Virus record (IMG/VR): IMGVR_UViG_3300043464_002758
Span: 1-24,136 of that record
Origin: a virus
Length of the DNA stretch: 24,136 nucleotides
Direction: 5' to 3' (one strand)
Shown here piece by piece: positions 1 to 24,136 of this stretch. A program made the position numbers and the translations under genes. Positions within the stretch are counted from its first letter, which is position 1, and every line of letters starts with the position of its first letter. The notes under the pieces are model-generated. The model was not told the origin of the DNA, did no database searches, and saw only the letters and a list, made by a program, of their open reading frames with translations.

Positions 1-113
1 CCCCAAGCGTCCATGATTTTAGCCCTGGACGCACATTGGCAGCCGGCCTCTTCCTGGAGTTTGAACCAGGAGAGGAGTTGTTTCAGGGCTGTTCCTGGGA
101 GGCAGGGGGTCAT
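1..113 (-). CDS. Partial small cysteine-containing protein (GTxLKxLL / CxC / MDxWG type)
   Basis: The gene runs off the left edge; 37 codons are visible. Its ATG (113-111) overlaps the TGA of the giant upstream gene by four bases (ATGA), so it is probably translationally coupled to it. The peptide begins MTPCLPGTALKQLL, continues with an amphipathic helix, then a CQC pair, RAKIMDAWG, and leaves the window. From memory this pattern matches short proteins of unknown function seen in planctomycete genomes and phages, where further cysteines follow the visible part; metal binding would be an inference. The alternative is chance, since only 113 bases are seen. The exact 4-bp overlap and the sensible composition argue for a real gene. 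Confidence 0.6.
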   Translation of the reverse strand, partial: MTPCLPGTALKQLLSWFKLQEEAGCQCASRAKIMDAW

Positions 114-3100
114 GCGGGGGGCACGCGAACGGCCGCCGAATCGCTGAAGTACGGCGACCACAACACAAAGCTCGAATGTGCCGCTGCGCCGCCGCCGCCG
201 CCGCCGAGGGAAAACGAGATTAGTGGAGGTGAGCTAAATTCGTAGGTCCGAGCCTGTTCTGGGTAATCGATCCAGGCATATGAAACGCTTCCGTCCCACC
301 AATGCCTGTAAAATTTCCACTGGCCGATCTGCGTTTGAGAATAAGGGCTCGGAACCGGATACGCGTCGCCAACTATCGTGGCCTCCGTGGGCCTGGAGAC
401 CACCGACTCTGGCCTTGCTGGAGACAATGAAAGCGAAATGTTGCAAGCAATTGCCTCGTTGAGCGACAGCGTCCGAAACGCAGCGTTCGGCCAAGCTCCG
501 ATGTAGTATTGACTCGTCATTCTGTGCGAAGGCTTTTCTCTGCTAACAACTACAACCCTCGGAGCAGAAGAAAATTTTCTTTTGTTAAAATCCTCGCTTG
601 GAGTGAACAAAAATCCGGGCGGGCTGTCCGTGGAAATAAACGTGCCGGCCGGCAAGACGGCTCCACGATCTTCTCTGCCGCCGTCGAGGTACACGTCGGC
701 AGCGGCCAAGTTGTTTCCGCTGCCTAAAGTTGACCAAATAACGGTTCCTGAAATTGTTCCCGTGGTCGAGTTGATTGCAACATTACCAACTGGCGGAAAG
801 TCCCAAGACTCTGGACGACCGCCCCTGAGGTAGAAGGTTGTGTCCAGCGTGTACCCACCCCCCGGCGATGAAACAACGATCTCTTCTGTCGAACTTGCGG
901 AGGCAGCGGCCCCCTCGCCGGAGGTGTCGACGACAAAAACTTCAGGCAGCCCGCCGGGCGAGTAGCGAACAATCGGCAAGGCAGTAACGCCGATGGGCGA
1001 TGTAATGAAAATGCCGCTTGACCAGGAATACTTTGTAATGTAATTGCTTTTTCCGAGCCACACCGGCCCAATCATTTTTAGTTCAAGCGAATCTCTTTCG
1101 TAGGCTCCTACTCCTTCAGTCCATGTGTCACCGGCCATGAGTGCTGGCCTGTAGTTCGCGCGAAAAGCAGCGTCGCCGTTTGGGGGCGAGGCCTGCATGG
1201 GCGGCCCGTCGCCGGACGCCCCGACGTCCACGCTAAAAGCGCCAGAAAGGCACGACAGTTCAACGTGAGGAACAATTGAGTTTTCGAGATAGACTTCTTG
1301 AGGCGAGGAGAATTCGCCCCCAGACGCAGCCTCCGGAGGGACAGACTCAATCGGGCCGCCGAGCGAAGTGCTCTCGCTGGAGCCCCAGCCCGTGCCGCCC
1401 GGTAAAGCGAAAGTGTTGAATCTCCTGTCCGACAACAGGGCGTAGTTCTGCCCTGGGTCAACGATGTTGGCGCCGCTCTTTGGACCGGCGATCCGCAGTT
1501 GAATGTACGGCAAGAAATCTGGGTCAGACGGGTTCTCCGCCAGGAAATTGTTGCTCATGTCGACGGAAACGGACGGCGATGTCTGGTATCCGCTGCCCTG
1601 GGAGGTGATCTTTACAGCGACAACCGATCCGTTGATCCTGGCAGTGGCAGCCGCGCCCGCCCCTGTCGTGGAAATGGACGCAGTCGCCGCCGCCCCGTCG
1701 CCGCCCCCGCCGCTGAAGAAAACAAAAACTGGCTCTCCTGGCTCAAAGCCGTACCCGCAGTCCGTAATAGACACCGACGAGACTGCCCCAGATATGCTTG
1801 CAGCCGCACTCGCGCCCGTGCCGATGCCGCTTACAATCAGGCACTTTGCGTCGCCTGAATAGCCCGAGCCGCCAGCGGTCAATGTAACTGATTGAATTCT
1901 CCCGCCAGAAACGCTCGCCGTAGCCGTTGCGTCACTCCCTCCCGTGAAGTATAGAGTCGGCGCAGCGGCATATCCATAGCCCCCAGAAACAATCTCAACG
2001 TCCTCAATGGCACCGTCCGAGACCGTACATTTGAGAATTGCTTCGACGTACTTCGCAAAGGAGACTGTCGGTGGCTGAAAATATCCGGCACCCCCGTCGT
2101 CTATGGCAATTGACGAAACGACACCCCCGGAAACAACGGCGTGAGCCTTCGCTTGCCTGCCGCTTGCTGGGTCGTAGCCGCCGACAAGCTCGACCAGGGG
2201 CGGATTGACATACCCCTGCCCTCCGCTCAGTACGGAAATGGATGCTACGGATGCTGAAATCCTGCACTCCGCTTTCGCACCCCCCCCGCACGGTGCGACT
2301 ACGCCGACTAGGGGCGAAGACGAATAGCCGCTGCCTCCGTTTGTGAGCGAGATCGACTCAATGTGCCCAAACGGCTGCAACGAGACCGTAGGCTGCCGCC
2401 GATATCTGCCGCCGTACTGAATATCAATCGAGTCGACTGCCATCGAGAGCGTGACGCCAAGTTTTGCGTTCCCGGCGGAGGCGGAAGTCCCTGTTGCGTA
2501 TCCCGAGCCTCCAGACGTTACTTGAACCGAAGTTATTGCGGCGTCGAGCGTAGCGGAGGCGGATGCCCCCGATCCGCCTCCGCCTGAAAACGACACGCTC
2601 GGCTCTGACGTATATTCGGAGCCTCCGGATGTCACGATGACCCTCGCGACCTTGAACTTTCCTTGGCCGTCTCCCGAGAGCACGGGAATTGCCGTGGCCC
2701 CGGAGCCGCCGCCGGAAAAAGACACGACGGGCTCCGAGGTGTACCCAGAGCCGCCGTTGGTTACCGTGACGTACTGAACGTATCCCTTGATTTGCGCTGT
2801 CGCCGCTGCGCCGCTGCCGCTTCCGGAGAATGAAATTGCTGGCGGCGACCGGAATCCGCTCCCCCCGTCAGCAACAGTCACTGAGCCGATTGCCCCAGAG
2901 CACGACGCGGAGGCAACGCCGGGGACTCCGTTCTTTGAAAACAGCACTTCCGGAGGACACCTATACCCTGAGCCACCAGACGTCACTTTCGTATCGTAGA
3001 CGGGCCCCTGAATGACTGACTCCAATGAGGCGCCGTCGCCGGTGCCGTCATTTGCCGTCACCGTGAGGGCCGGAGGCGAATGAAACCCGGCACCAGGGCG

Positions 3101-6100
3101 TATGATCGCCGCGCCTCTCGCTTTTCCATTTATGGGATTTCGGATAATCGCCGTGCCGGGCGGCTGACCAATCGAAATGACGGGCGGCTCCGTGTACCCG
3201 CCCCCAGGAGAGTCAAGGCTAATTTCCAGATCGACCGCGTGCCTGACTCTGCCAGGCGCCGATCCTGTCCCCTCCACGTTTGACGGCGCAGTGTAGAGCT
3301 TATTGGTGGAAGACAGCCTCCCGACTGCCCTTGATTGATTTGTCGGCCTATCGAGCGTCAGGAGCGGGTCGATGATTGCAATGTTGTCAAAGTAGTGGCC
3401 GACCGATCCGTCGTTCATCCAGACGATGTCGCCTCTTGAGTCAACAACTCCTGGGGCTTTTCTAAACTGGGCCTCCTCAATTTCGCAAAGCTCAAGCGAG
3501 CCATTGCCTTCAAGCACACACAGCGGGGGCGATACCGAGCGAGGGAAAACGAAATATTGCCAGTACGAGAAGGGGGCCCTCCTGCTTAGCCTGCCATCCG
3601 CAAGAGATGGAATAGAAAATGCAGAGCTATAAGGCAGCGGTGGCTGGCGGGCCCTCGAAATCTTAGTCCGAAAGCTGTCGTATACTTTATTCGAGCCGCC
3701 GTTGCATAGTATTTCAAATCTCTCGTCAAAATCCTCTATGTCAGAGGAAATCGTTGTGAATCCCCAGGTCGGGCTAGTTCCGCTGATGCTGCAAGGGGCA
3801 GCCTCGCTGTTGCCCGTCCCCGGCCTGAAGACAGAAACCCGATACGTTAAGGCTTCTTCCGAAAATTCTGGATCGGAGGCTTTGTATGAGTATTCTGTGT
3901 TGAAAAATGAACCCCCACCGGCAGTTATCCCACCGGCAGTTTTCCGCTTTGTCGTTTCTTCTACTTCAATACTTGTAAGAAACCTTTGAGATCGCGGATG
4001 AGAGGCTTCTGGATAAGGCAACGATTGATAGCCAGCAAAAAAAGGGTGGACGAAAGTGGTGTACTGCCCAGCACCGGCGTGCCCAAAAGGGTCCCACGCC
4101 ATGCCGTCGGAGTCGATGAAAAATCTTCCGGAAACTCTCTCAAATCCATCTGGCCCAACAAGCTCGGCGGACAGCCCGGGGAGCACCGGATTTTCCGGGT
4201 CTAGCTCAACATGAGTGAGCCTTGGAACTTCTGTGTAGCCCCACCCAAAATACGTCTGACGGCAGTCATAAATCCGAAATTGCGGAGGCTCCCCGGACGC
4301 TGAGTCGCTCTGCTCTTCAAAAGTCACTATTTGAGGGATGGCGGGCTTCACGCCAAAAACCGGCGGATCAACCAGTATTTCGCTCACAAACATGTTTGAC
4401 TGCGAAGACCCGGAGTCGGCGTAGCCCCAAAAGTTAGCATACGCTACCCCAAGTGTTAGGTAAGACACCGGCCCTCCTGGAGAAGCCGGAACTGAGCACG
4501 TTTCTCCTGCCGTAATCTTCACCCCCCTGCCGACAGGAATCTGGTTGTCTCCAAAAAGGAAGTACCCCTTGCCGTCCGAAACTCCAATCTGCGCGAATGT
4601 TCCGTTCGGCAGAAAATTCGCGTAGCTGCTTACGCTGCTCCAGGTTTTTTCTCCCACCCTCTCCGGCACGAGCCGTGATTGTGTCGCAAAGAAAACGCCG
4701 GGCTCCTGCGTGTACCCGCTCCCCCCGGACAGGAGTGACACAGACTGATAGCCGCCGTTTCCCGTCAAGGAAGCAACGCCTCTGGCAATCGTGCCGATGC
4801 CGTCTTCTGCACTTCTTTGGCCGTCTGGGCACCACACGTTCGCATACTCGCTGACCGGAGGTCGCCAGTACATCGAGATGTCGGGCTCAGGAGAGGTGCC
4901 GACAAATGGGGCGTCGCTGTACTCAATCTCCAGATCAACCGAGCCGTTTGGAGGGAGGGGCGGCACTTCCGAAATGTTCGTAACTGGCCCGGACGAGTGA
5001 ATGGCCGAATTGGATTCAAACAAAACGAGCCCGTTGTAGTTTTTCCAGTTTAAAGTCGAGCCGCTCGGACCCTCGGCGGACATTGATTTTACGCTTGATG
5101 TGGCGTTGGTAATACCAAACGGGTCAGGCGTTGCATAGCTTATGAGTTCATGGAATTGCCACGAAGTTGGGCAGCTTGCATTCGGAAGCCAGCTTCTTGC
5201 ATAGGACACGACGCCTTGGGGTGCCGGATTCGGTCTTCTTCTTTTGAAAAAGGTGCGAAGTGTTGGCGGCGTAATTCCAAACCCACCAGCGGGCGAACTA
5301 AGGGTCCATGTGCAAGAAAAACCCGGGCTCGCTCCAGCCCCGGGAGGCGGCGGCTGCGGCGGGGCGCCCGTATCGCCTGTCCCCGACCCCGGGCCTGTCC
5401 CCGACCCGGGGGGCGGCGAGGGGGGGATTAGGGCAGAAGAAACATCCAACGGAACCTCTCTTCCCCCACCGCCGACTAGCACGGCTGAGTGAATTTCAAA
5501 CGGGCCAGCGCCGGATAATGAGAACGGCATCACTATTCCGTCGCTAAACAAACGCCTTCCTGTCTGCACTGGCGAGGGTGGGCCCTCGATCCTCACAACC
5601 GGCCCCGGCCCCAGGACGACGCCCCCGACAACCGCTCTTTGCGAAATCGCGTCATCGCCAGCCGGTGTGGCGACGACCACCAGCGGATATGCTCCCCAAC
5701 TCGGCGTCCCGCTGTACCCGCTGCCCGGCTGAACAACATCAATGGCAATCACGGGGCCGTGCAAATTGTCGACCACGGCCGAAGCGCCGGTGCCGCCTCC
5801 GCCGGATATGCTTATCAGCGGAATGTTTTCCCAGCACACCGGATTGTCTGAATGACTCCACGTTATGTTAGTTGACGGCTGATCTTTCCACGCGTCGCCG
5901 TCGTACTGCCAGGGCAGCCAACCGACAACAACTTTCTGTATTGATGAAGCCGACGGCACGCACTTTGCCGCAGCGCCGGAGCCGTCTCCAGACACTTGCG
6001 CCGACTCGCTCGGGGCGTTGACATACGGAGAGGTTTTCATCCGCCTCGCGGCCGCCCCGCTCGATGTCATTGTCCATGAAACAATCTCGCCGTTTTCGAC

Positions 6101-6883
6101 GACCGCATTTGCGGTCGCGCCAGTGACGGGGTCCGTGGCGGTGGCTGCCGTATAGCCAGAGCCGCGACTAACAACCTCAAACCGAGCCGTTGTCGTGGGG
6201 GACATTATCGCCCACAAAACCGCTCCCTGGTCCACGTCGCCCCCTTGAGGGACAGCGTTAATCACTGGCGGAGAGGTGTACCCGGAGCCACCAGACACAA
6301 GCCGGATGTCCCTGATCTGCCCCTTCCAGGTCAGCGATAGCTCCGCGCCGCTGCCGGTAACCGGAACCGGCGATTCCTGGCCGCCCGACAGTTTCCTTGA
6401 TTCGATCGAGAGGGAAGGTTTCCTGGTAAATGCAGGGGGATAGCTTACAAGCTCTACGGACCTGACCGGGCATGAAACAACCGCGCGAAAAAATTCCCCA
6501 CCGTAAAAATCTCCGCCGTTTTCGTACTTTGGCAGAAGCGACCACAGAGAGCCATCGGTTTTAAGTATGTAATTTCCGGAAAAACTGGCCCAGTCTGTGT
6601 CTTCGCCAATTTGGTGCGGCATTGGACCCCCCGCCCAGCCCGCCGTCGGGAAAAAAAGGGGGCTATCAGCAAGCTCCCAAAGCGTGCCGTCGCTCTTGAT
6701 TGCGTGCGTCGGCGCGTAGGGTTGATAAGGATTCGTGCTATTAAAATCAACCCAGTTTCCCTGCCTATCAACCCAACTAGCGTAGGAAATGCCCTCCGGG
6801 ACGGCGCCCGTCCACCACCAAGCTGAAAAGCCCAGGCCGTGAGTAAAGTAATCTTCGTATTTCTTGCTGTACAGCCAATACAT
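110..6883 (-). CDS. Giant repeat-rich tail fibre/spike-like protein (2257 aa)
   Basis: The last large gene of the tail module, seven bases after the preceding gene, so probably a fibre, spike or other receptor-facing protein; this role rests on position and architecture. Residues about 59-120 hold two RCC1-like signatures (AIKSDGTLWE and LKTDGSLWSLL, with QIGEDTDW between), too few for a full propeller. About twenty copies of a unit built on GGSGYTSPPxVxFSGGGGSGAxAxA occur: fifteen in near-tandem between about 3217 and 1550, the others scattered near 6280, 6160, 5720, 4720 and 850. Such Gly/Ser/Ala-rich beta units are common in phage structural proteins, and a repetitive beta fold is likely. 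A Pro/Gly-rich linker lies near 5300-5430. No enzymatic motif, signal peptide or membrane segment is obvious. Codon third positions look more A/T-rich than in the head genes. Confidence 0.85.
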   Translation of the reverse strand: MYWLYSKKYEDYFTHGLGFSAWWWTGAVPEGISYASWVDRQGNWVDFNSTNPYQPYAPTHAIKSDGTLWELADSPLFFPTAGWAGGPMPHQIGEDTDWASFSGNYILKTDGSLWSLLPKYENGGDFYGGEFFRAVVSCPVRSVELVSYPPAFTRKPSLSIESRKLSGGQESPVPVTGSGAELSLTWKGQIRDIRLVSGGSGYTSPPVINAVPQGGDVDQGAVLWAIMSPTTTARFEVVSRGSGYTAATATDPVTGATANAVVENGEIVSWTMTSSGAAARRMKTSPYVNAPSESAQVSGDGSGAAAKCVPSASSIQKVVVGWLPWQYDGDAWKDQPSTNITWSHSDNPVCWENIPLISISGGGGTGASAVVDNLHGPVIAIDVVQPGSGYSGTPSWGAYPLVVVATPAGDDAISQRAVVGGVVLGPGPVVRIEGPPSPVQTGRRLFSDGIVMPFSLSGAGPFEIHSAVLVGGGGREVPLDVSSALIPPSPPPGSGTGPGSGTGDTGAPPQPPPPGAGASPGFSCTWTLSSPAGGFGITPPTLRTFFKRRRPNPAPQGVVSYARSWLPNASCPTSWQFHELISYATPDPFGITNATSSVKSMSAEGPSGSTLNWKNYNGLVLFESNSAIHSSGPVTNISEVPPLPPNGSVDLEIEYSDAPFVGTSPEPDISMYWRPPVSEYANVWCPDGQRSAEDGIGTIARGVASLTGNGGYQSVSLLSGGSGYTQEPGVFFATQSRLVPERVGEKTWSSVSSYANFLPNGTFAQIGVSDGKGYFLFGDNQIPVGRGVKITAGETCSVPASPGGPVSYLTLGVAYANFWGYADSGSSQSNMFVSEILVDPPVFGVKPAIPQIVTFEEQSDSASGEPPQFRIYDCRQTYFGWGYTEVPRLTHVELDPENPVLPGLSAELVGPDGFERVSGRFFIDSDGMAWDPFGHAGAGQYTTFVHPFFAGYQSLPYPEASHPRSQRFLTSIEVEETTKRKTAGGITAGGGSFFNTEYSYKASDPEFSEEALTYRVSVFRPGTGNSEAAPCSISGTSPTWGFTTISSDIEDFDERFEILCNGGSNKVYDSFRTKISRARQPPLPYSSAFSIPSLADGRLSRRAPFSYWQYFVFPRSVSPPLCVLEGNGSLELCEIEEAQFRKAPGVVDSRGDIVWMNDGSVGHYFDNIAIIDPLLTLDRPTNQSRAVGRLSSTNKLYTAPSNVEGTGSAPGRVRHAVDLEISLDSPGGGYTEPPVISIGQPPGTAIIRNPINGKARGAAIIRPGAGFHSPPALTVTANDGTGDGASLESVIQGPVYDTKVTSGGSGYRCPPEVLFSKNGVPGVASASCSGAIGSVTVADGGSGFRSPPAISFSGSGSGAAATAQIKGYVQYVTVTNGGSGYTSEPVVSFSGGGSGATAIPVLSGDGQGKFKVARVIVTSGGSEYTSEPSVSFSGGGGSGASASATLDAAITSVQVTSGGSGYATGTSASAGNAKLGVTLSMAVDSIDIQYGGRYRRQPTVSLQPFGHIESISLTNGGSGYSSSPLVGVVAPCGGGAKAECRISASVASISVLSGGQGYVNPPLVELVGGYDPASGRQAKAHAVVSGGVVSSIAIDDGGAGYFQPPTVSFAKYVEAILKCTVSDGAIEDVEIVSGGYGYAAAPTLYFTGGSDATATASVSGGRIQSVTLTAGGSGYSGDAKCLIVSGIGTGASAAASISGAVSSVSITDCGYGFEPGEPVFVFFSGGGGDGAAATASISTTGAGAAATARINGSVVAVKITSQGSGYQTSPSVSVDMSNNFLAENPSDPDFLPYIQLRIAGPKSGANIVDPGQNYALLSDRRFNTFALPGGTGWGSSESTSLGGPIESVPPEAASGGEFSSPQEVYLENSIVPHVELSCLSGAFSVDVGASGDGPPMQASPPNGDAAFRANYRPALMAGDTWTEGVGAYERDSLELKMIGPVWLGKSNYITKYSWSSGIFITSPIGVTALPIVRYSPGGLPEVFVVDTSGEGAAASASSTEEIVVSSPGGGYTLDTTFYLRGGRPESWDFPPVGNVAINSTTGTISGTVIWSTLGSGNNLAAADVYLDGGREDRGAVLPAGTFISTDSPPGFLFTPSEDFNKRKFSSAPRVVVVSREKPSHRMTSQYYIGAWPNAAFRTLSLNEAIACNISLSLSPARPESVVSRPTEATIVGDAYPVPSPYSQTQIGQWKFYRHWWDGSVSYAWIDYPEQARTYEFSSPPLISFSLGGGGGGAAAHSSFVLWSPYFSDSAAVRVPPA
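1550..3217 (-). repeat. Protein-level tandem repeat: 15 GGSGYTSPP-type units in the giant tail gene
   Basis: Fifteen imperfect units of roughly 30-45 codons follow one another. Each has a beta-like strand (for example ITSVQVTSGGSGY), a Gly-Gly-x-Gly-Tyr/Phe turn, a proline pair, a strand such as VSFSG, and a Gly/Ala tail. Cores visible in order include GGGYTEPP, GAGFHSPP, GGSGYRCPP, GGSGFRSPP, GGSGYTSEP, GGQGYVNPP, GGAGYFQPP, GGYGYAAAP and GSGYQTSP. DNA conservation between units is only moderate, so this is an old, diverged array and not a recent expansion. Confidence 0.85.
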
Positions 6884-17068: not shown

Positions 17069-17268
17069 TTCGCCCGCCGCTTCTCTGTGACGACCGCTCG
17101 CTCGGCCCGCGAGGTGTCCTGGTCGGCTCGGTCGACGGCAACCGAACGCTCCTCGCGGGCGGGCTCGGCTGCGCCCTCGGCGATCCAGTTCTTGGCGAGC
17201 GGGTCATGCACGTCAGCCACCTGCCCGGCCTTGTACCAACTCCAGTCTCGAAGCATTCTGATTTTCAT
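17065..17268 (-). CDS. Small head-region protein, unknown function (67 aa)
   Basis: ATGA overlaps at both ends bind it to the glycosyltransferase gene before it and the connector gene after it. The first 37 residues (MKIRMLRDWSWYKAGQV then HDPLAKNWIAEGAAEP) match a small family I recall in phage head modules, where it usually sits right before the connector gene. The last 30 residues are charged and probably disordered. A role in head completion or as a capsid accessory is only inferred from place. Confidence 0.72.
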   Translation of the reverse strand: MKIRMLRDWSWYKAGQVADVHDPLAKNWIAEGAAEPAREERSVAVDRADQDTSRAERAVVTEKRRAK

Positions 17269-18038
17269 TGCGGCGCCCTTTTGATTGATTTCTCTGCGTG
17301 ATCTTCACTGCCCCAGGCCTCTGGCGGCCGCTTGCCTCCGGCCTCCCAGAAATGCGTCGGGTACTGATGCATCGCCTTCAACCGCTGGTCGGGCCAAGTG
17401 ATCACAAGCTCCGCGTGACCGATCGCGACCTGCGGGCACACGGCAACGGTGTTGCCAGCCTTGCGGAATCGATGCCAGAATTCGATGTCCGGGTCTCGCC
17501 TTCCGTCCCCCCAGTCTCCGTCTGGGCCAGGGATGCCGATGAACCACGGCTTCTCCATTCGTCGCAGGGCCGCCGTGCGGATGATCGTGAGCCCGAAGTG
17601 TGCCGTGTCGACGGGCTGGGCCGGGCTCTCCCACCACTCGGACGGCAGGGTCACGGTCACGGGCCCCTTGTCTGTCGCGAGGCCCTCCGGAGTGAACATC
17701 AGCGTCTGGTCGTCACGCTTCGTCTGAAGTGGAGCCAGAGCGTCGACGCCGCTGATCAGCATTGCGCCCATCAGCCGGTTCACGCAGTCGGGCTCGAACA
17801 CAGAATCGTAATCAATCGTGATCACGAACTGGTTGCCGGCCTCCTCCTTAGAGAGGTCCGTGAGGAGCCGTGACATGGTCTGGTCCCAGAACGCGCCGGT
17901 CCCCTTATGGATTTTGATTCCATGAGGGGCGAGCGCCGAGAAGACCGTGAAGAAATTGTCCTGGAACCCCAGGCGGGGCACCGAGAAACAGGCGGCTACC
18001 TGAACGTCATGCTCGACGTTGCCAACGAGGACTCGCAT
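17265..18038 (-). CDS. GT-A-type glycosyltransferase embedded in the head module (257 aa)
   Basis: The sequence shows a short GT-A-type core. FVITIDYDSVFEPDCVNRLM carries the DxD motif (D76-x-D78) that binds a metal-coordinated sugar nucleotide. HFGLTIIRTAAL (about 147-158) is the usual second conserved segment. DPDIEFWHRFRKAGNTVAVCPQVAIGHAE (about 182-210) supplies an acidic residue, the FWxxxxxxG helix and a conserved His. It has no membrane segment or signal peptide, so it should act in the cytoplasm. The donor and acceptor are unknown. Placed between a head protein and the connector genes, it may modify a virion protein or host surface material. Start: ATG at 18038 with GGAG about nine bases upstream. 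Confidence 0.82.
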   Translation of the reverse strand: MRVLVGNVEHDVQVAACFSVPRLGFQDNFFTVFSALAPHGIKIHKGTGAFWDQTMSRLLTDLSKEEAGNQFVITIDYDSVFEPDCVNRLMGAMLISGVDALAPLQTKRDDQTLMFTPEGLATDKGPVTVTLPSEWWESPAQPVDTAHFGLTIIRTAALRRMEKPWFIGIPGPDGDWGDGRRDPDIEFWHRFRKAGNTVAVCPQVAIGHAELVITWPDQRLKAMHQYPTHFWEAGGKRPPEAWGSEDHAEKSIKRAPQ

Positions 18039-18579: not shown

Positions 18580-20052
18580 TCAGGAGAGGGCCGTGCGGAG
18601 ACCGACGAGCGGGCCAGCCTTCGTGTTGTCGCCGCAATCGTGGGTGACCGCATCGAACCTTGTGGTCGCCACGATCAAGGTCTGGTCGAGTTCCGCGTAG
18701 CGGTCGACCGAGGTCTTGATCTGGAGGCCACGACGGGTCGCGTACATCGTCGAGAGCGACAGGTCGCCCAGGAGGAACTTGACCTTGCCGGCGTCGACGC
18801 CGAGGTTCGCGTCCATTGTGTGGACGAAGTTCACTGGATATCCCAACAGACGCATTTCGGGAGCTTCAGCAAGGTTCGAGGCGTTGTTGCCGCCCGTCAG
18901 CTTGCCCTGGTTGGTCAGGCCGAGACGCTGCACGCTGGCGGCGAACACGGCCGGCGAACAGTACCATGCTGCGCGAGCGCGACTGTAAACCGGAAGCCGA
19001 GCGGCCGCGTTCACGAAGTCGTCGATCGTCAGGCTGGTCACGGCCGTGTTGCCGGTTGCGGCGGTCACGAGGCTACCGTTGTGGTTGCCGTCGGCAACCT
19101 TCACCGCAGCACCCACGATCCCGCCGTCTTCGCCCGAGCCCGTGCCCACGAAGCCCACGCGATCCGTGAGAATCGCGATGGACCGAGCGATTTCAGTCGT
19201 CAAATAATCGGCGAGATTGATGACGGTCGCGTCTTGAAGGAGTTCCGAAGACATGCGGTTCGAGACCGCCACCTTCTTCGCCACAAGCTGCACGCGGTCC
19301 CACGAGGCGTCCGAGTCCGGAATGCTCGTGTTCTCGCCAATAAAATAGGCCTGGAGGCCGCCGACCCGGCGAGGCACCACGAGGGTGTCCGAGTTCATGT
19401 TGACGTTGCGAGCGTTCGCGGCGAACACTCCATACTGCTCGACCAGCACGACGATTTCGTTGAGGACCTCCTCCGCCACGAACAGGCCGCCGAGCGAATT
19501 GACGCCCTCGCCCTGAGCGCGGCTGTCGACCACGCCGTGGTCCGTACACCACCGAGTGGCGTCGCGGTCGCCGAACAGGGTCGACTTGAAGTACATGCCA
19601 GCGCGATAGGCACGCTCTTCGGCGTTGGGACCCTTGAAGCCACGGAGACGGCCGGCACCGGGAAGGTTGTGGTAAATCTGCGTCACGGATCGGCCCTCCT
19701 TGGCCGGGGTGTTGTTAACTGCGGCCACCGAAGCGGGGGTCGCCTTGTCCAGGACAGTGCGAAGTTCGAGTTCCTTCGCGGCAACAGACTCATAGAACTT
19801 GATGCGGTCGCGAATCTTCTCGGCCCGCTCACAGAGGCAGCGAATCTTCTTCTCCTTCGACTCCTCCTCCTCGTACTCCTCTTCGGGAGACTCGGACTTG
19901 GTCTCATCCTCTTCCATGCCGGCCTTCTCGGTCGTCTTCTCGGTGTCGACCTCGGTGTCCTCGATGCCACCCTCTTCCTGGAGGGCGCCCATCTCGGCGA
20001 GGACGGCGGCGAGTTCGTCGAGCAGTTGCTTGACCTTGGACGAGGCTTCCAT
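18580..20052 (-). CDS. HK97-fold major capsid protein with long N-terminal delta domain (490 aa)
   Basis: Builds the icosahedral shell. Residues 1-115 form a helical, very acidic scaffold-like delta domain (KVKQLLDELAAVLAEMGAL, then a Glu-rich tract at about 56-66, then CERAEKIRDRIKFYES) that the prohead protease should remove. The shell domain contains GVNSLGGLFVAEEVLNEIVV (about 183-202), the family's GGxLVPxxV-like motif, then DTLVVPRRVGG, SWDRVQLVAKKVAVSNRMSSELLQDA and the C-terminal FLLGDLSLSTMYATRRGLQIKTSVDRY. I start it at ATG 20052, preceded by AGGAAG. An upstream in-frame ATG at 20100 would add 16 residues (MAPVCHHTHTNQEANH) that look like untranslated leader. Neighbours (protease before, connectors after) agree. 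Confidence 0.95.
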   Translation of the reverse strand: MEASSKVKQLLDELAAVLAEMGALQEEGGIEDTEVDTEKTTEKAGMEEDETKSESPEEEYEEEESKEKKIRCLCERAEKIRDRIKFYESVAAKELELRTVLDKATPASVAAVNNTPAKEGRSVTQIYHNLPGAGRLRGFKGPNAEERAYRAGMYFKSTLFGDRDATRWCTDHGVVDSRAQGEGVNSLGGLFVAEEVLNEIVVLVEQYGVFAANARNVNMNSDTLVVPRRVGGLQAYFIGENTSIPDSDASWDRVQLVAKKVAVSNRMSSELLQDATVINLADYLTTEIARSIAILTDRVGFVGTGSGEDGGIVGAAVKVADGNHNGSLVTAATGNTAVTSLTIDDFVNAAARLPVYSRARAAWYCSPAVFAASVQRLGLTNQGKLTGGNNASNLAEAPEMRLLGYPVNFVHTMDANLGVDAGKVKFLLGDLSLSTMYATRRGLQIKTSVDRYAELDQTLIVATTRFDAVTHDCGDNTKAGPLVGLRTALS

Positions 20053-20370: not shown

Positions 20371-22152
20371 TTACCTTCTGGAAAACTTACCCTTCACCGT
20401 CTGCACGGCATCGTGCGCGAACGAATGCACAGGGGCCGTGAGATACGTCGCCACGAGGACGTCCGACGCATGCCCTGCGGCGAGCGTGAATCCATTCCGA
20501 ACTAGCTTCGAGACATAGGCGGAAGAGCTTTTCTTCACGACCACCGAGATCGACTTCGGCGTGGACTTATCAGCGATTTCTTTGACGCGGGAGATTTCCT
20601 TCGTTGTCAGTTCGCCCGTGGCTCGCCTGGGGTAGACGGTGATCGTTTTCTTGTCGACCTCGACGCTGAAGGTCTTCTTGCCGTCTTTGTCGCGGATCGT
20701 GAGGCGTAACGAGTTCCCCTTCGTGTCGGCCGACGACTCCGGAGCGCCCCCGAGCTTCTGGACAAGGTCACCGACCTGCTTCGTGTCCATCCCGAGCTTC
20801 TCGATCGTCTTCTTCACTCGCGTCGGCCGCATCTGGTTGTCGTAGATGCCCTTCACCGCGCCGGTGGTGGCGCCGATGGCGGCGGCCGGCTTGACCACGG
20901 CAGGCCCCCCGGTGAGAAGGCCAGTGATCGCGCCCTTGATCCCGCCCTTGACGGCGCCGGATGCGGCGGCGGCGACGACTCCGGAGGCGCATGTGTTGCC
21001 AGAAGAGAACTTCCCGCCCTCGTCTCGCCCGCAGTCGCGTGCCTCCGCGAACGCGAGCAGGCTGGCGTAGCGGGCGTCGAGCTTCGCCTTGAGCCTTTGC
21101 TTCGACGAAAGGCCGTCCCATGATTTCTTCGTTTGATCCGGATCGTTCACGACCTCGATGTCGTACTTTTTCCCGCCGGCGAAGAGCCTCTTGGCAATCG
21201 TCTTCGGAAACGCTTCTTTGGCAAAGCCCTTGATTTGCTTCGCCTCTTTGTCCGAGACCTTGTCGCTCGTGTAGATCGTGGCCCCGTAATAGCCCATGTG
21301 GATGAAGTGCGTCTCGTTGTTGTTCCGGTCGCGGATGAAGATGTTCACGCCCTCATCGCCGCGAGTGGAGTCGATCTCGACGATGGAGTTGCTGACCTTG
21401 CCACCCAGGTCGCGGATCAGCTTCTTGATCTGCTTCTCCGTGGTCCTCATCTGGTAGAGCTTGCGGGCCACCTTCGTCTGCACCTTGTCAGACTTCGTGC
21501 GGACGTTGCGGATTCGCTCGCCCTTGCTGTTGGAGATGCCGCACGAGTTGTCGACCCCACCGCCGTCGCCGGTTGCACAGAATGCTCGCATCTCCACGCC
21601 GTCGAGGTCGTACTCAAACTCGTCGCTGCGGCTCGACTTGTTAATGACCCTGCCGATGATCCCCTTCGTGTCGAGCACAACCGGCGAGACGGGCGTCACA
21701 TCCGAGACCGGGTATCCGTACTTTCCGGCGGGCGTGACGTAGTGCGGGCTGCCTGGGGCAACGTGATGCTTATCGCGATCCGCGTCGAAGTCCTTCTTCG
21801 TCTTATAGAACTTCGGCTCTCCGATCTTCATCGTTCCGACGAGCGTTGCCTTGCCCTTGCCGGTTCGCACAATGCCAACCGTCTTGCCGACATAAGGGCG
21901 AAGCGAATCTGTAGGGCGAGTCTCGATCGTTTTCTTGCCGGCCAGAATCTGCCCAGTGAAGTCCTGTGTCGAATCGTTGATGTTGATGCCGATCCGACAC
22001 TTGTTCCCGTCTCCGAACTTCCCGTCCGGAGTACGGCCGCAATCCGCCGCTCCAGTGACGGCGCCACCGCCAGCGTTCGTCCCCGCACCCATGGCGCGGG
22101 CCTGCGAGAACGCGACCAGGGCTGCGATACGGCAGTCTGTCGAGAGGCTCAT
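20371..22152 (-). CDS. Modular protein: Cys-motif, ASCH-like domain, two related alpha/beta domains, glycine zipper (593 aa)
   Basis: Starts at the ATG 22152-22150, sharing one base with the protease stop (TGATG). In order: a short helix, Cys motif 1 (C38-x13-C52, CGRTPDGKFGDGNKC); an ASCH-like domain at about 55-165 (GQILAGKKTIETRP, YVGKTVGIVRTGKG), a fold often tied to RNA binding or nuclease activity; Cys motif 2 (C192-x11-C204, CATGDGGGVDNSC); an alpha/beta domain at about 235-335; Cys motif 3 (C374-x13-C388, CGRDEGGKFSSGNTC); a glycine-rich zipper at about 390-436; and a second alpha/beta domain at about 440-570. The two domains are related to each other and to one in the protease extension. 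Function is unknown. It may be an internal head protein carrying injected or regulatory modules. Confidence 0.75.
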   Translation of the reverse strand: MSLSTDCRIAALVAFSQARAMGAGTNAGGGAVTGAADCGRTPDGKFGDGNKCRIGININDSTQDFTGQILAGKKTIETRPTDSLRPYVGKTVGIVRTGKGKATLVGTMKIGEPKFYKTKKDFDADRDKHHVAPGSPHYVTPAGKYGYPVSDVTPVSPVVLDTKGIIGRVINKSSRSDEFEYDLDGVEMRAFCATGDGGGVDNSCGISNSKGERIRNVRTKSDKVQTKVARKLYQMRTTEKQIKKLIRDLGGKVSNSIVEIDSTRGDEGVNIFIRDRNNNETHFIHMGYYGATIYTSDKVSDKEAKQIKGFAKEAFPKTIAKRLFAGGKKYDIEVVNDPDQTKKSWDGLSSKQRLKAKLDARYASLLAFAEARDCGRDEGGKFSSGNTCASGVVAAAASGAVKGGIKGAITGLLTGGPAVVKPAAAIGATTGAVKGIYDNQMRPTRVKKTIEKLGMDTKQVGDLVQKLGGAPESSADTKGNSLRLTIRDKDGKKTFSVEVDKKTITVYPRRATGELTTKEISRVKEIADKSTPKSISVVVKKSSSAYVSKLVRNGFTLAAGHASDVLVATYLTAPVHSFAHDAVQTVKGKFSRR

Positions 22153-23969
22153 CAGCGGCGGCCCTTGAGGAACCTCAGCGTGTCGTCGATGACTTGGCGG
22201 GGGTCGACGGATCGCTTCTTGATTCGTCCCTTCACCTCTTCCGAGAGCTTCTTGAATGCCTCGGTCGTGTCGCCGTTCGTAAACGGATACTGCTCCGTCT
22301 TGCTGCCGTCCGGGTGCTGGCCCTGGACGTAGCCTTCCTTGTCTCCAACCTGCTTGGCAGTCCACGGATAATGCTCGCCCTTGCTCCAGGTCTGGACGCC
22401 ACCGCCGTCGTCGGCCTTGCCTCCGTCCTTGCCTCCACGGGCAAGCTGACCCTCGCGTGCCTTGTCGAGAAACTCCTGGGCGTCCTTCTCTTTGGACTTG
22501 TCCTTGTGGTCGCCCTTGCTCCACTCCTTGTAGTCGCCCTTGCCGCCGCACGAGTTGTCGAGCCCGCCGCCTGGGCCGGTGGGGCAGAAGCCGCGACGCT
22601 CGCGGTAGAAGTCGAGGAATTCGTCGTAACGCTTGGACGACTTCTTTCCGAAAGACTTGATCATTGTGACGCGAGTTGCGTCGTCGGCTGCGATCGAATG
22701 CGTGAAGCCGGCGTCGACAAACGTGTCTTCTTCGAGCCGGTCCATCGTGTCGAGGGCGACCATGATGTGATCGACCCCGAGATCGCGCCCGGCCTTGATC
22801 AGCGTCTTCGCGAGTTGCCCGACGCTTTCAGTTCCCTTGCCGCCAATTGTGCTCGTGGCGCCTTCGACGAAAGCAACTCGCCCGGAGAGGCGACTTCCTA
22901 CCTCATCCTTGCCGTACCTCTGAATCGACAGCTTGACGCCGCCGCCCTCCGCTTCGACGCCGCCGTTTTTGCCTGCCGTGATCGACATGGACTTCCCAAG
23001 CGTTCTTGCGAAAGAGTCGATTTTCTTGACAGAAGAACCGAACTTCTTGAGAGCTTTCTCGACCTTTGCAACATAGCGGTCGACGCTGACGGCGCCTGCG
23101 ACAAGGCCAGCGAACCCGCCAACAATTGCCCCGGGCACTCCGGCGATTGCGCCTATCGCCGCGCCGGTGGCCGCGCCTGCAACGGCCGGCAGTGAGTCGG
23201 CGTGAATATTGGCGCCGACGTCGTCGGCGGGCTTGTCGCCGCCTTTGCCCCCACACGAGTTGTCGACGCCGCCGCCTGGGCCGGTCGGGCAGAAGCCGCG
23301 ACGCTCAGCGATGAACTCCTGGCACTTCCGCATCTCTTCGCCGATGTCGATCTTCGGCTTCGGCGGCTCGGCCACGGCGGCCGGCGGATCGCTCGCCAGG
23401 AACTGCTCGTAGCTCCGCTTCGCGACGGCAACGGAAGAATCCCTGTACGCCGGGTAGGTCACCGGGCCGCAGTCCAGGAGCGATTTAATTTTTGTGACAA
23501 GCCGACGGCTTCTGCCGCCCTCGCGGCTCCACTTCTCGCCGCCTTCTGCCACGACGAAGCTGAAGCTCGATCCCTTCAGGTCCCCGCGAGCCACCATTTC
23601 GGCCAAATCTTTGCGGCTCTCTGGAAGGAGAATTTCGTACTTGAGGCCGATCTTGTCGACCACGAGCTTCATCGTGTTTGGATAGCGGCCGATGAGGTGA
23701 TTCGGGTCGTGGTTGAACAGGCCACGAGTCTCCAGGGGGCGACCTTCGAGGTCCTTGCCCTTCTCGACGATCTCGAATGCCGACGGCGCAATTTGCTCGA
23801 CGAAATCCCCCAAGAGCAACGAGTCGGTGCGGAACTTGGCCGCGTACCCGACAAGGTACGTCTTCCGCTCTCCGGTCTCCGGGTCGGCACGCTCCTCGAC
23901 GCCGAGTGCGCCCTCGGTGGCGTTCTCCGATCCCGTGGTGGCAAGATACCGACGTTCGACGTTGTCCAT
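22152..23969 (-). CDS. HK97-type prohead protease (S78/U35) with long modular C-terminal extension (605 aa)
   Basis: Residues 1-190 are a prohead protease: LVGYAAKFRTDSLLLGDFVEQIAPSAFE, the catalytic His region GLFNHDPNHLIGRY (H87), the Ser region LKGSSFSFVV (S135) and LLDCGPVTYPAYRDS, whose acidic residue (D166) may be the third member. Family enzymes average about 200 residues, so some 400 residues are extra. That extension holds Cys motif 4 (C227-x11-C239, CPTGPGGGVDNSC), a glycine zipper (about 262-294), an alpha/beta domain (about 297-440, perhaps GNAT-like), Cys motif 5 (C462-x11-C474) and a Lys/Asp-rich tail. The start chosen, ATG at 23969, has AAGGAGA five bases upstream. The frame also stays open upstream to the window edge. 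Confidence 0.9.
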   Translation of the reverse strand: MDNVERRYLATTGSENATEGALGVEERADPETGERKTYLVGYAAKFRTDSLLLGDFVEQIAPSAFEIVEKGKDLEGRPLETRGLFNHDPNHLIGRYPNTMKLVVDKIGLKYEILLPESRKDLAEMVARGDLKGSSFSFVVAEGGEKWSREGGRSRRLVTKIKSLLDCGPVTYPAYRDSSVAVAKRSYEQFLASDPPAAVAEPPKPKIDIGEEMRKCQEFIAERRGFCPTGPGGGVDNSCGGKGGDKPADDVGANIHADSLPAVAGAATGAAIGAIAGVPGAIVGGFAGLVAGAVSVDRYVAKVEKALKKFGSSVKKIDSFARTLGKSMSITAGKNGGVEAEGGGVKLSIQRYGKDEVGSRLSGRVAFVEGATSTIGGKGTESVGQLAKTLIKAGRDLGVDHIMVALDTMDRLEEDTFVDAGFTHSIAADDATRVTMIKSFGKKSSKRYDEFLDFYRERRGFCPTGPGGGLDNSCGGKGDYKEWSKGDHKDKSKEKDAQEFLDKAREGQLARGGKDGGKADDGGGVQTWSKGEHYPWTAKQVGDKEGYVQGQHPDGSKTEQYPFTNGDTTEAFKKLSEEVKGRIKKRSVDPRQVIDDTLRFLKGRR

Positions 23970-24136
23970 CGCGGTCTCCTTGCCATCGATGCTACGGGCT
24001 GGCGTATCCAGACTATAAGAGCGGCCTTCCTTCTCGTCGGCAGCGTTCATCTGCTCGACGACCTTCTTGGCCCACGAGTAGCCGCTCTGGAATCCGCCCC
24101 ACAACTTCGCGGCGATGTAGCCGTTCGAGGGCCAGC
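23970..24136 (-). CDS. Partial upstream coding segment, in frame with the protease (YIAAKLWGG type)
   Basis: The protease frame continues upstream to the right edge without a stop and reads WPSNGYIAAKLWGGFQSGYSWAKKVVEQM, then a low-complexity linker. I recall a similar IAxxLWGGDAGxxWA motif at the C terminus of small phage proteins encoded near portal and protease genes. The other two minus frames stop within about 120 bases and look non-coding. So either an N-terminal domain is fused to the protease, or the upstream gene has no stop of its own before the internal start at 23969. A TTG at 24104 is a possible but weak start. Confidence 0.55.
23975..23981 (-). promoter_or_regulatory. Ribosome binding site supporting an internal protease start
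   Basis: Minus strand AAGGAGA lies five bases before the ATG at 23969, inside an open frame. The match is strong enough to suggest initiation here even if a longer fusion is also made. Confidence 0.65.

What the first reader, a model, noticed from the sequence alone, without database searches (positions are those of the whole stretch)
20371..23969. Five two-cysteine motifs punctuate a chain of mobile-looking domains attached to the prohead protease
Seen: motifs CPTGPGGGVDNSC and CPTGPGGGLDNSC (protease residues 227-239 and 462-474), CATGDGGGVDNSC, CGRTPDGKFGDGNKC and CGRDEGGKFSSGNTC (593-aa protein residues 192-204, 38-52 and 374-388). Several are preceded by a similar short helix ending in AFAEARDCG, YRERRGFC or EFIAERRGFC. 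Each motif sits exactly at a domain boundary, followed by an unrelated segment (ASCH-like, glycine zipper, Lys/Asp-rich tail). Inference: the helix plus Cys motif is a transferable tag, perhaps a capsid-lumen targeting, maturation-cleavage or metal/disulfide element, that lets a phage string cargo domains behind its head-maturation enzyme. I know no described system of this form.
Basis: partly seen in the sequence, partly recalled or inferred. Interest (0 to 1): 0.85.

Follow-up and report, generated by a model that had tools for sequence, protein, structure and literature searches.

The report
Portable junction for phage head cargo
Some uncultured phages string effector-type proteins behind their portal and head-protease proteins, using one short repeated junction (a likely head-protease cut site followed by a two-cysteine loop) at which related phages swap whole cargo units, which suggests an undescribed plug-in way of loading proteins into virus heads.

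Summary
The five motifs are exactly where reported. They belong to a recurrent protein element with three length classes: C[PA]TGxGGG[IV]DNSC, CGTGxGGFxxGNxC and CGRDxxGKFxxGNxC. Several hundred instances occur in phage contigs; shuffled proteins give none. The element lies C-terminal to portal domains (HK97-, lambda- and Mu-type) and S78 prohead proteases (207 of 208 instances), never in capsid proteins, almost always ahead of a domain-sized segment. Cargo includes ADP-ribosyltransferases (ART-PolyVal, Alt-like), zeta-toxin, RelA/SpoT, Ntox46 and GNAT-like domains. Related phages swap cargo exactly at the motif, also within the window's own two proteins. Many DNA spellings encode the same peptide and neither cysteine is ever lost, so selection acts on the protein. 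In HK97-type phages the motif directly follows [ED]xR, resembling the predicted maturation cut in the capsid protein; Lys or Arg matches between the sites in 60 of 60 cases, but on one evolutionary switch. Best reading: a composite junction (head-protease cut site, Cys loop, Gly linker) for head-packaged, probably injected effectors. Cleavage, packaging and injection are inferred. Head-fused effectors ("polyvalent proteins") are known; this junction and cassette grammar appear not to be. The preceding helix is not part of the general element.

The parts
22152..23969 (-). Prohead protease chain (P0001, 605 aa as read from the ATG at 23969; the ORF is open to the window end)
   Evidence: PF04586 Peptidase_S78 E=1.7e-29, residues 31-190; PHROG head maturation protease E=3.3e-33; fold match to T4 gp21
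23400..23879 (-). S78 protease domain (residues 31-190)
23292..23306 (-). Predicted cut site ERRGF before motif 1 (residues 222-226)
   Evidence: [ED]xR rule; inferred
23253..23291 (-). Motif 1 CPTGPGGGVDNSC (class 13)
   Evidence: DNA homology to L008 and L006 ends at 23251
22587..23252 (-). Cargo unit: Gly linker, Gly-zipper segment, GNAT-like domain, terminal helix
   Evidence: Gly-zipper E=0.0014, below the curated cut-off; AF2 and Foldseek GNAT-like; absent from L008
22587..22601 (-). Predicted cut site ERRGF before motif 2 (residues 457-461)
   Evidence: DNA homology to L008 resumes at 22602
22548..22586 (-). Motif 2 CPTGPGGGLDNSC (class 13)
22155..22547 (-). C-terminal unit of the protease chain (cargo cluster 1), natural C-terminus ..RFLKGRR
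20371..22152 (-). 593-aa cargo chain (P0002); its ATG overlaps the protease stop (TGATG)
22042..22152 (-). Leader of P0002 (residues 1-37, helix 5-21)
21997..22041 (-). Motif a CGRTPDGKFGDGNKC (class 15); no basic residue directly before it
   Evidence: homology to L009 and L014 ends at 21998
21580..21996 (-). Cargo unit, ASCH-like (weak), exchanged for another unit in L009
   Evidence: ASCH E=0.085, below cut-off
21580..21594 (-). Predicted cut site EMRAF before motif b
21541..21579 (-). Motif b CATGDGGGVDNSC (class 13)
   Evidence: homology to L008 ends at 21537
21034..21540 (-). Cargo unit (cluster 6); its relatives also sit directly behind portals
21034..21045 (-). Predicted cut site EARD before motif c
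20989..21033 (-). Motif c CGRDEGGKFSSGNTC (class 15)
20374..20988 (-). Cargo unit (cluster 2): Gly-rich segment plus GNAT-like domain
   Evidence: AF2 443-570, Foldseek to acetyltransferases prob 0.94-1.0, E about 1e-3
18580..20052 (-). HK97-type major capsid protein (no motif)
   Evidence: PF05065 E=9.8e-34
19513..19530 (-). Predicted capsid maturation site VDSR/AQ (residues 175-180)

Best explanation
The motif is the conserved core of a portable junction with three parts: a cut site for the phage's own head-maturation protease ([ED]-x-R or -K, then A, G, D or N), a two-cysteine loop, and a flexible Gly/Ser linker. Phages use it to attach effector-type domains, one after another, behind proteins that sit inside the head (portal C-terminus, S78 prohead protease) or behind short leaders of about 8-37 residues. 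The cargo is thus carried into the prohead. When the protease is activated and trims the capsid protein, it also cuts the chain just before each Cys loop, freeing single cargo units that leave with the DNA and act in the host. Because every unit begins with the same junction, recombination swaps, adds or deletes whole units in frame. Shown: junction identity, polarity, anchors, cargo exchange at the junction, protein-level conservation. Inferred: cleavage, packaging, injection, and that the Cys pair forms a closed loop (disulfide or metal) that presents the cut site or caps the unit.
For: Anchors: 71 of 109 portal and 54 of 112 S78 ORFs in the fetched loci carry it, 207 of 208 instances C-terminal of the anchor, 0 of 96 capsid proteins (loci were fetched by motif, so these are not population rates). 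Lambda-type portals: 19 of 27, 24 of 24 instances after the domain. Mu-type portal, and a Singulisphaera HK97-type portal. Polarity: in 292 of 295 ORFs closed at the 3' end, at least 80 aa follow the last motif; inter-motif median 243 aa, minimum 106. Cargo: ART-PolyVal 1.5e-31, Zeta_toxin 5.9e-22, ADPrib_exo_Tox 2.9e-16, RelA_SpoT, Ntox46, GNAT; Alt-like ART; XopAD-family effector. Swapping: phages 94-98% identical over 1.8-2.5 kb diverge 24-32 nt after the motif and carry unrelated cargo; window versus L008, L009 and L014 break at motif ends; 3' homology breaks at motif ends 18% versus 1.6% by chance. Protein-level selection: 33 copies of one peptide, 32 DNA spellings; neither Cys ever lost. 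Cut site: [ED]xR before 81% of class-13 and 66% of class-15 motifs in HK97-type loci against 3% background, 2 of 23 in lambda-portal loci; capsid site [ED]xR[AV] in 55 of 76, at the place aligned with other HK97-fold capsids; HK97 itself is cut K103/S104 (PMC10275583). Lys/Arg match 15 and 45, none discordant, 36 of them in loci fetched to test the prediction.
Against: No direct evidence of cleavage, packaging or injection. The Lys/Arg match is one evolutionary switch on the capsid tree, so its Fisher p-value is not valid evidence of repeated covariation. Class 14 in HK97-type loci has [ED]xR in only 29% (basic residue in 84%), one protein group has no basic residue before the motif although its capsid has the R site, and motif a of the window also lacks it. 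Lambda-portal phages keep the Cys loop without [ED]xR, so the loop has a role not explained by this protease site. The window's own cargo units have only weak family assignments, from low-confidence models. The natural hosts are unknown.
Confidence: 0.58

Rival explanations
1. Uncut chain: the junction is only a flexible, Cys-closed spacer. Portal and protease carry intact polyvalent chains into the head and the whole chain is injected, the Cys loop (disulfide or metal) keeping neighbouring domains apart.
For: Lambda-portal phages keep the Cys loop and Gly linker without [ED]xR; both Cys are invariant; N4 virion RNAP is a precedent for a large packaged chain that is not processed (PMC5512222).
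Against: It does not explain why [ED]xR precedes the loop in HK97-type phages and resembles the capsid cut site, or why Lys/Arg matches between them. A 1600-aa extension on each of 12 portal subunits would be hard to keep intact through packaging (inference).
Confidence: 0.22
2. Capsid-targeting tag: the motif itself binds the inside of the prohead (capsid, scaffold part or portal) and recruits any protein that carries it, as the capsid targeting sequence of T4 internal proteins does; cutting is secondary.
For: Free-standing proteins with unrelated leaders of about 8-37 residues share only the motif and the last residues before it; T4 internal proteins are diverse with only a conserved targeting sequence (PMC3012670). 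This is compatible with the best explanation.
Against: A chain already fused to portal or protease would not need up to seven tags; the motif works with three unrelated portal families and different capsid families, so a conserved binding partner is not obvious.
Confidence: 0.15
3. DNA-level element: the repeat is conserved because it is a recombination target (homology patch or site-specific), not because of the peptide.
For: Swaps break at the motif and motif copies within a genome share 80-92% DNA identity over 44-76 bp.
Against: Third codon positions vary freely, and degenerate codons are widely used at invariant residues. Peptide classes of different length interchange at homologous positions. 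The motif is always in frame and N-terminal to cargo.
Confidence: 0.04

Closest known systems
Polyvalent proteins of phages (Iyer et al. 2017, PMC5512222)
   Same: Large multidomain polypeptides with ARTs and other effectors, encoded with portal/terminase genes, predicted to be packaged and injected; ART-PolyVal and LPD1 domains occur among the cargo here.
   Different: A uniform Cys-loop junction between units, with a predicted head-protease site and cassette exchange at it, is not described there (no mention of cysteine or linker in the text).
Effectors fused to MuF, portal or capsid-processing serine peptidase (PMC9503650; MuF polymorphic toxins, PMC5576092)
   Same: The same anchors (portal, head protease) and the same kinds of effector; predicted delivery from the head.
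   Different: Described as single fusions; here long chains and free-standing proteins share one junction sequence. The window proteins have no MuF domain.
T4 internal proteins and Alt with the capsid targeting sequence (PMC3012670)
   Same: Diverse injected proteins share only a short targeting tag; proteolysed mature forms occur; Alt-like ARTs are among the cargo here.
   Different: Here the element is repeated within chains, carries two invariant Cys and is fused to portal and protease.
SPN3US ejection proteins cut by the prohead protease gp245 after A-x-E (PMC10052503)
   Same: A head protease with a three-residue motif trims head-packaged proteins that are thought to enter the host.
   Different: Propeptide removal at N-termini, not separation of units in a chain; different motif.

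Membership tests
Polyvalent proteins | Two or more effector domains in one polypeptide | tested here: met
   Chains of up to about eight segments in one ORF; ART, zeta-toxin, GNAT and other domains among cargo representatives
Polyvalent proteins | Encoded with virion/packaging genes of phages that use a portal-terminase system | tested here: met
   Portal, S78 protease and HK97 capsid genes adjacent; 145 of 150 motif ORFs without an anchor domain lie within 3 kb of such a gene, all on the same strand
Polyvalent proteins | Known effector families in the window's own proteins | tested here: inconclusive
   Only weak ASCH and GNAT-like assignments in the window; relatives are clear
Polyvalent proteins | Packaged in the head and delivered to the host | not testable with these tools
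   Needs virion proteomics
HK97-type (S78) prohead protease | Peptidase_S78 domain next to portal and capsid genes | tested here: met
   PF04586 E=1.7e-29, fold match to T4 gp21
T4 capsid targeting sequence | Short N-terminal position ahead of diverse cargo | tested here: met
   Leaders of about 8-37 aa ending in the motif; also internal copies
T4 capsid targeting sequence | T4 CTS sequence removed by gp21 | not tested
   No direct comparison with the CTS sequence was made; the junction has its own conserved sequence and is not filed as a CTS
MuF polymorphic toxins | N-terminal MuF domain with C-terminal toxin | tested here: not met
   No MuF match in the window proteins; one cargo representative elsewhere matches PF04233
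Polymorphic toxins | Cognate immunity gene next to the toxin | not tested
   Not examined

The most novel reading that the evidence does not exclude
A general load-and-cut grammar for virus heads: any domain placed behind [ED]xR plus Cys loop is built into the head, cut free by the head protease during maturation and injected, and unrelated phages trade effectors as cassettes at this junction.
Probability: 0.42. Interest if true: 0.88.

Novelty: new variant of a known kind. Interest (0 to 1): 0.76.

Why it matters
If true, the motif gives a simple sequence rule for finding head-packaged effectors and the edges of each unit in uncultured phages, where most such domains have no annotation. It would also turn an open question (how phages choose and free the proteins they inject) into a direct test, and offer a natural plug-in tag for putting proteins into phage heads.

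Tried and rejected
Helix as part of the tag: rejected as general, since conservation stops about five residues before the motif. Natural C-termini ending in RR as a family-wide sign of cut ends: mainly in protease chains (24 of 31; portals 9 of 39, others 40 of 143). E-x-R-A-Y in the capsid protein (AEERAY) as the cut site: set aside, because the second site (VESRA) lies at the position aligned with other HK97-fold capsids. Lys/Arg match as statistical proof: downgraded after the tree showed one switch. Host assignment: class-13 pattern 0 hits in 84,980 genomes; class-14 only a few, one of them a Singulisphaera portal; 1 of 343 genomes of its phylum; no class-13 hit there. INPHARED tblastn with a motif peptide gave nothing, but BLAST's low-complexity filter makes that search unreliable; P0002 also had no match there. 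No solved-structure match to the motif. Paper search for the motif strings found nothing relevant.
Full report
WHAT WAS CHECKED. The window is a 24,136-base uncultured virus record holding a head/tail module on the - strand: an S78 prohead protease chain, a 593-aa chain, an HK97-type capsid protein, connectors, a long tape-measure-like protein and tail genes. The five motifs are exactly at the reported residues and nowhere else in six frames. Shuffling never produces them.

THE ELEMENT. Three length classes share C, G, a hydrophobic residue and N-x-C: 13 residues, ExR[AG]F-C[PA]TGxGGG[IV]DNSC; 14 residues, R[DN]-CGTGxGGFxxGNxC; 15 residues, CGRDxxGKFxxGNxC; each is followed by a Gly/Ser-rich stretch. 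Classes 13 and 15 replace each other at homologous positions of the protease chain, so they look functionally equivalent. Thirty-three copies of CPTGEGGGIDNSC use 32 DNA spellings, and no copy with one or both Cys lost was found, although many of these contigs hold extra copies that did not have to match the search pattern. Selection therefore acts on the peptide and on the Cys pair.

WHERE IT SITS. Within fetched loci it occurs behind 71 of 109 HK97-type portal and 54 of 112 S78 ORFs, with 207 of 208 instances C-terminal of the anchor, and in none of 96 capsid ORFs. It is also behind lambda-type portals (19 of 27), a Mu-type portal and an HK97-type portal in Singulisphaera acidiphila. Because loci were fetched by the motif, these counts are not population frequencies. 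In nearly all long records (44-97 kb) all copies lie on one strand within one block of 5-13 kb; G005 has two distant copies. Motif ORFs lacking an anchor domain lie within 3 kb of a portal, protease or capsid gene in 145 of 150 cases, always on the same strand. The motif precedes cargo: of 295 ORFs closed at the 3' end, 292 have at least 80 residues after the last motif, and units between motifs have a median of 243 and a minimum of 106 residues. Free-standing proteins with unrelated leaders of about 8-37 residues also end their leader in the motif.

CARGO. Post-motif segments fall into about 136 clusters, and many clusters occur behind different anchors and different motif classes. Among 71 representatives: ART-PolyVal, ADP-ribosyltransferase exoenzyme, zeta toxin, RelA/SpoT, Ntox46, GNAT, MuF, LPD1, XopAD-family effector, Alt-like RNA polymerase ADP-ribosyltransferase. 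In the window, AlphaFold2 (low mean confidence) with Foldseek suggests GNAT-like units in both proteins; an ASCH-like unit is only a weak profile hit.

SWAPPING. Phages 94-98% identical over 1.8-2.5 kb, including the portal region and a shared 35-aa leader, stay identical through the motif and 24-32 nt of linker, then carry unrelated cargo; in pairs examined homology returns roughly 90-110 nt after the cargo stop. Two of those cargoes carry ART-PolyVal. In the window's own proteins, homology to L008 ends at 23251 (motif 1 ends at 23253), resumes at 22602 (just before motif 2, one whole unit missing in L008) and ends at 21537 (motif b ends at 21541). Homology to L009 ends at 21998 (motif a ends at 21997) and resumes at 21588, nine bases before motif b; L014 breaks at the same motif a and resumes before motif c. 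Over the data set, 18% of internal 3' homology breaks fall at motif ends against 1.6% for random positions, and 21% of 5' breaks just before motif starts against 3%. Pairs are not independent, and the shared motif itself can pull an alignment to its end, so the exact crossover base is not resolved; that units change at the junction is.

CUT SITE. In HK97-type loci the motif directly follows [ED]xR in 81% (class 13, R at -3 in 147 of 148) and 66% (class 15), background 3%; in lambda-portal loci the Cys motif persists but [ED]xR is nearly absent (2 of 23), and no S78 hit was found in those stretches. The capsid proteins carry [ED]xR[AV] 4-12 residues before a conserved GG (55 of 76; window VDSR/AQ, residues 175-180). 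A capsid profile aligns this place with LEGKAL of the RcGTA capsid and ETRAL of 9gyi, and HK97 is cut at K103/S104 (PMC10275583). The basic residue before class-14 motifs matches that of the capsid site: 15 Lys-Lys, 45 Arg-Arg, no mismatch, 36 of these in loci fetched as a test of the prediction. The capsid tree shows that Lys is one clade, so this is one switch, not many. Four of the five window junctions have the site (ERRGF, ERRGF, EMRAF, EARD); motif a does not.

MECHANISM. The simplest account is a composite junction: a cut site for the head protease, a Cys loop, and a linker. Portal C-termini face the head interior and S78 proteases work inside proheads (established knowledge, from memory), so fused cargo would end up inside; maturation would cut units apart; they would leave with DNA. 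The Cys loop's own job is unresolved: presenting the scissile bond, capping the unit or docking are all possible. Its persistence without [ED]xR in lambda-portal phages shows that it does more than accompany this protease site.

KNOWN OR NEW. Effectors fused to portal, MuF or the capsid-processing peptidase and multi-domain polyvalent proteins are described (PMC5512222, PMC9503650, PMC5576092), as are a shared targeting tag on T4 internal proteins (PMC3012670) and trimming of head-packaged proteins by a prohead protease (PMC10052503). The junction motif, its cassette grammar and its link to the capsid cut site were not found in the literature that could be searched. I therefore call it a new variant of a known kind.

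Noticed in passing
L034 (IMG/VR 3300033993_001760): A second contig is 100% identical to window 20562-24136 (3,575 bases) and continues beyond the window end, with a 2,223-aa open frame holding six motifs next to the protease gene.
   Followed up: partly
window 23970-24134 (- strand): The protease frame stays open to the window end with a segment like WPSNGYIAAKLWGG..SWAKKVVEQMN; a similar segment is the C-terminal unit behind the motif of a Mu-type portal (L158), so it may itself be a cargo-like domain.
   Followed up: no
window 110-6883 (- strand): A 2,257-aa tail-end protein with many SGGSGYxxxP-type repeats and no Pfam match.
   Followed up: no
window 17265-18038 (- strand): A weakly glycosyltransferase-like protein (PF13632, E=0.0016, below cut-off) lies between capsid and connector genes.
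   Followed up: no
window 20374-20988 and 22587-23252 (- strand): Cargo units in both chains open with Gly-zipper-like, alanine/glycine-rich hydrophobic stretches, possibly membrane-inserting.
   Followed up: no
L164:2179-4986 (- strand): A Singulisphaera acidiphila portal carries a class-14 motif followed by a long NASTKP repeat and a C-terminal domain with no Pfam match.
   Followed up: partly
L167, L186, L193, L275 and relatives: About 570-aa proteins have an N-terminal class-14 motif after RRPAKMGPSAG with no basic residue at the cut position, although their capsid proteins have the R site.
   Followed up: no
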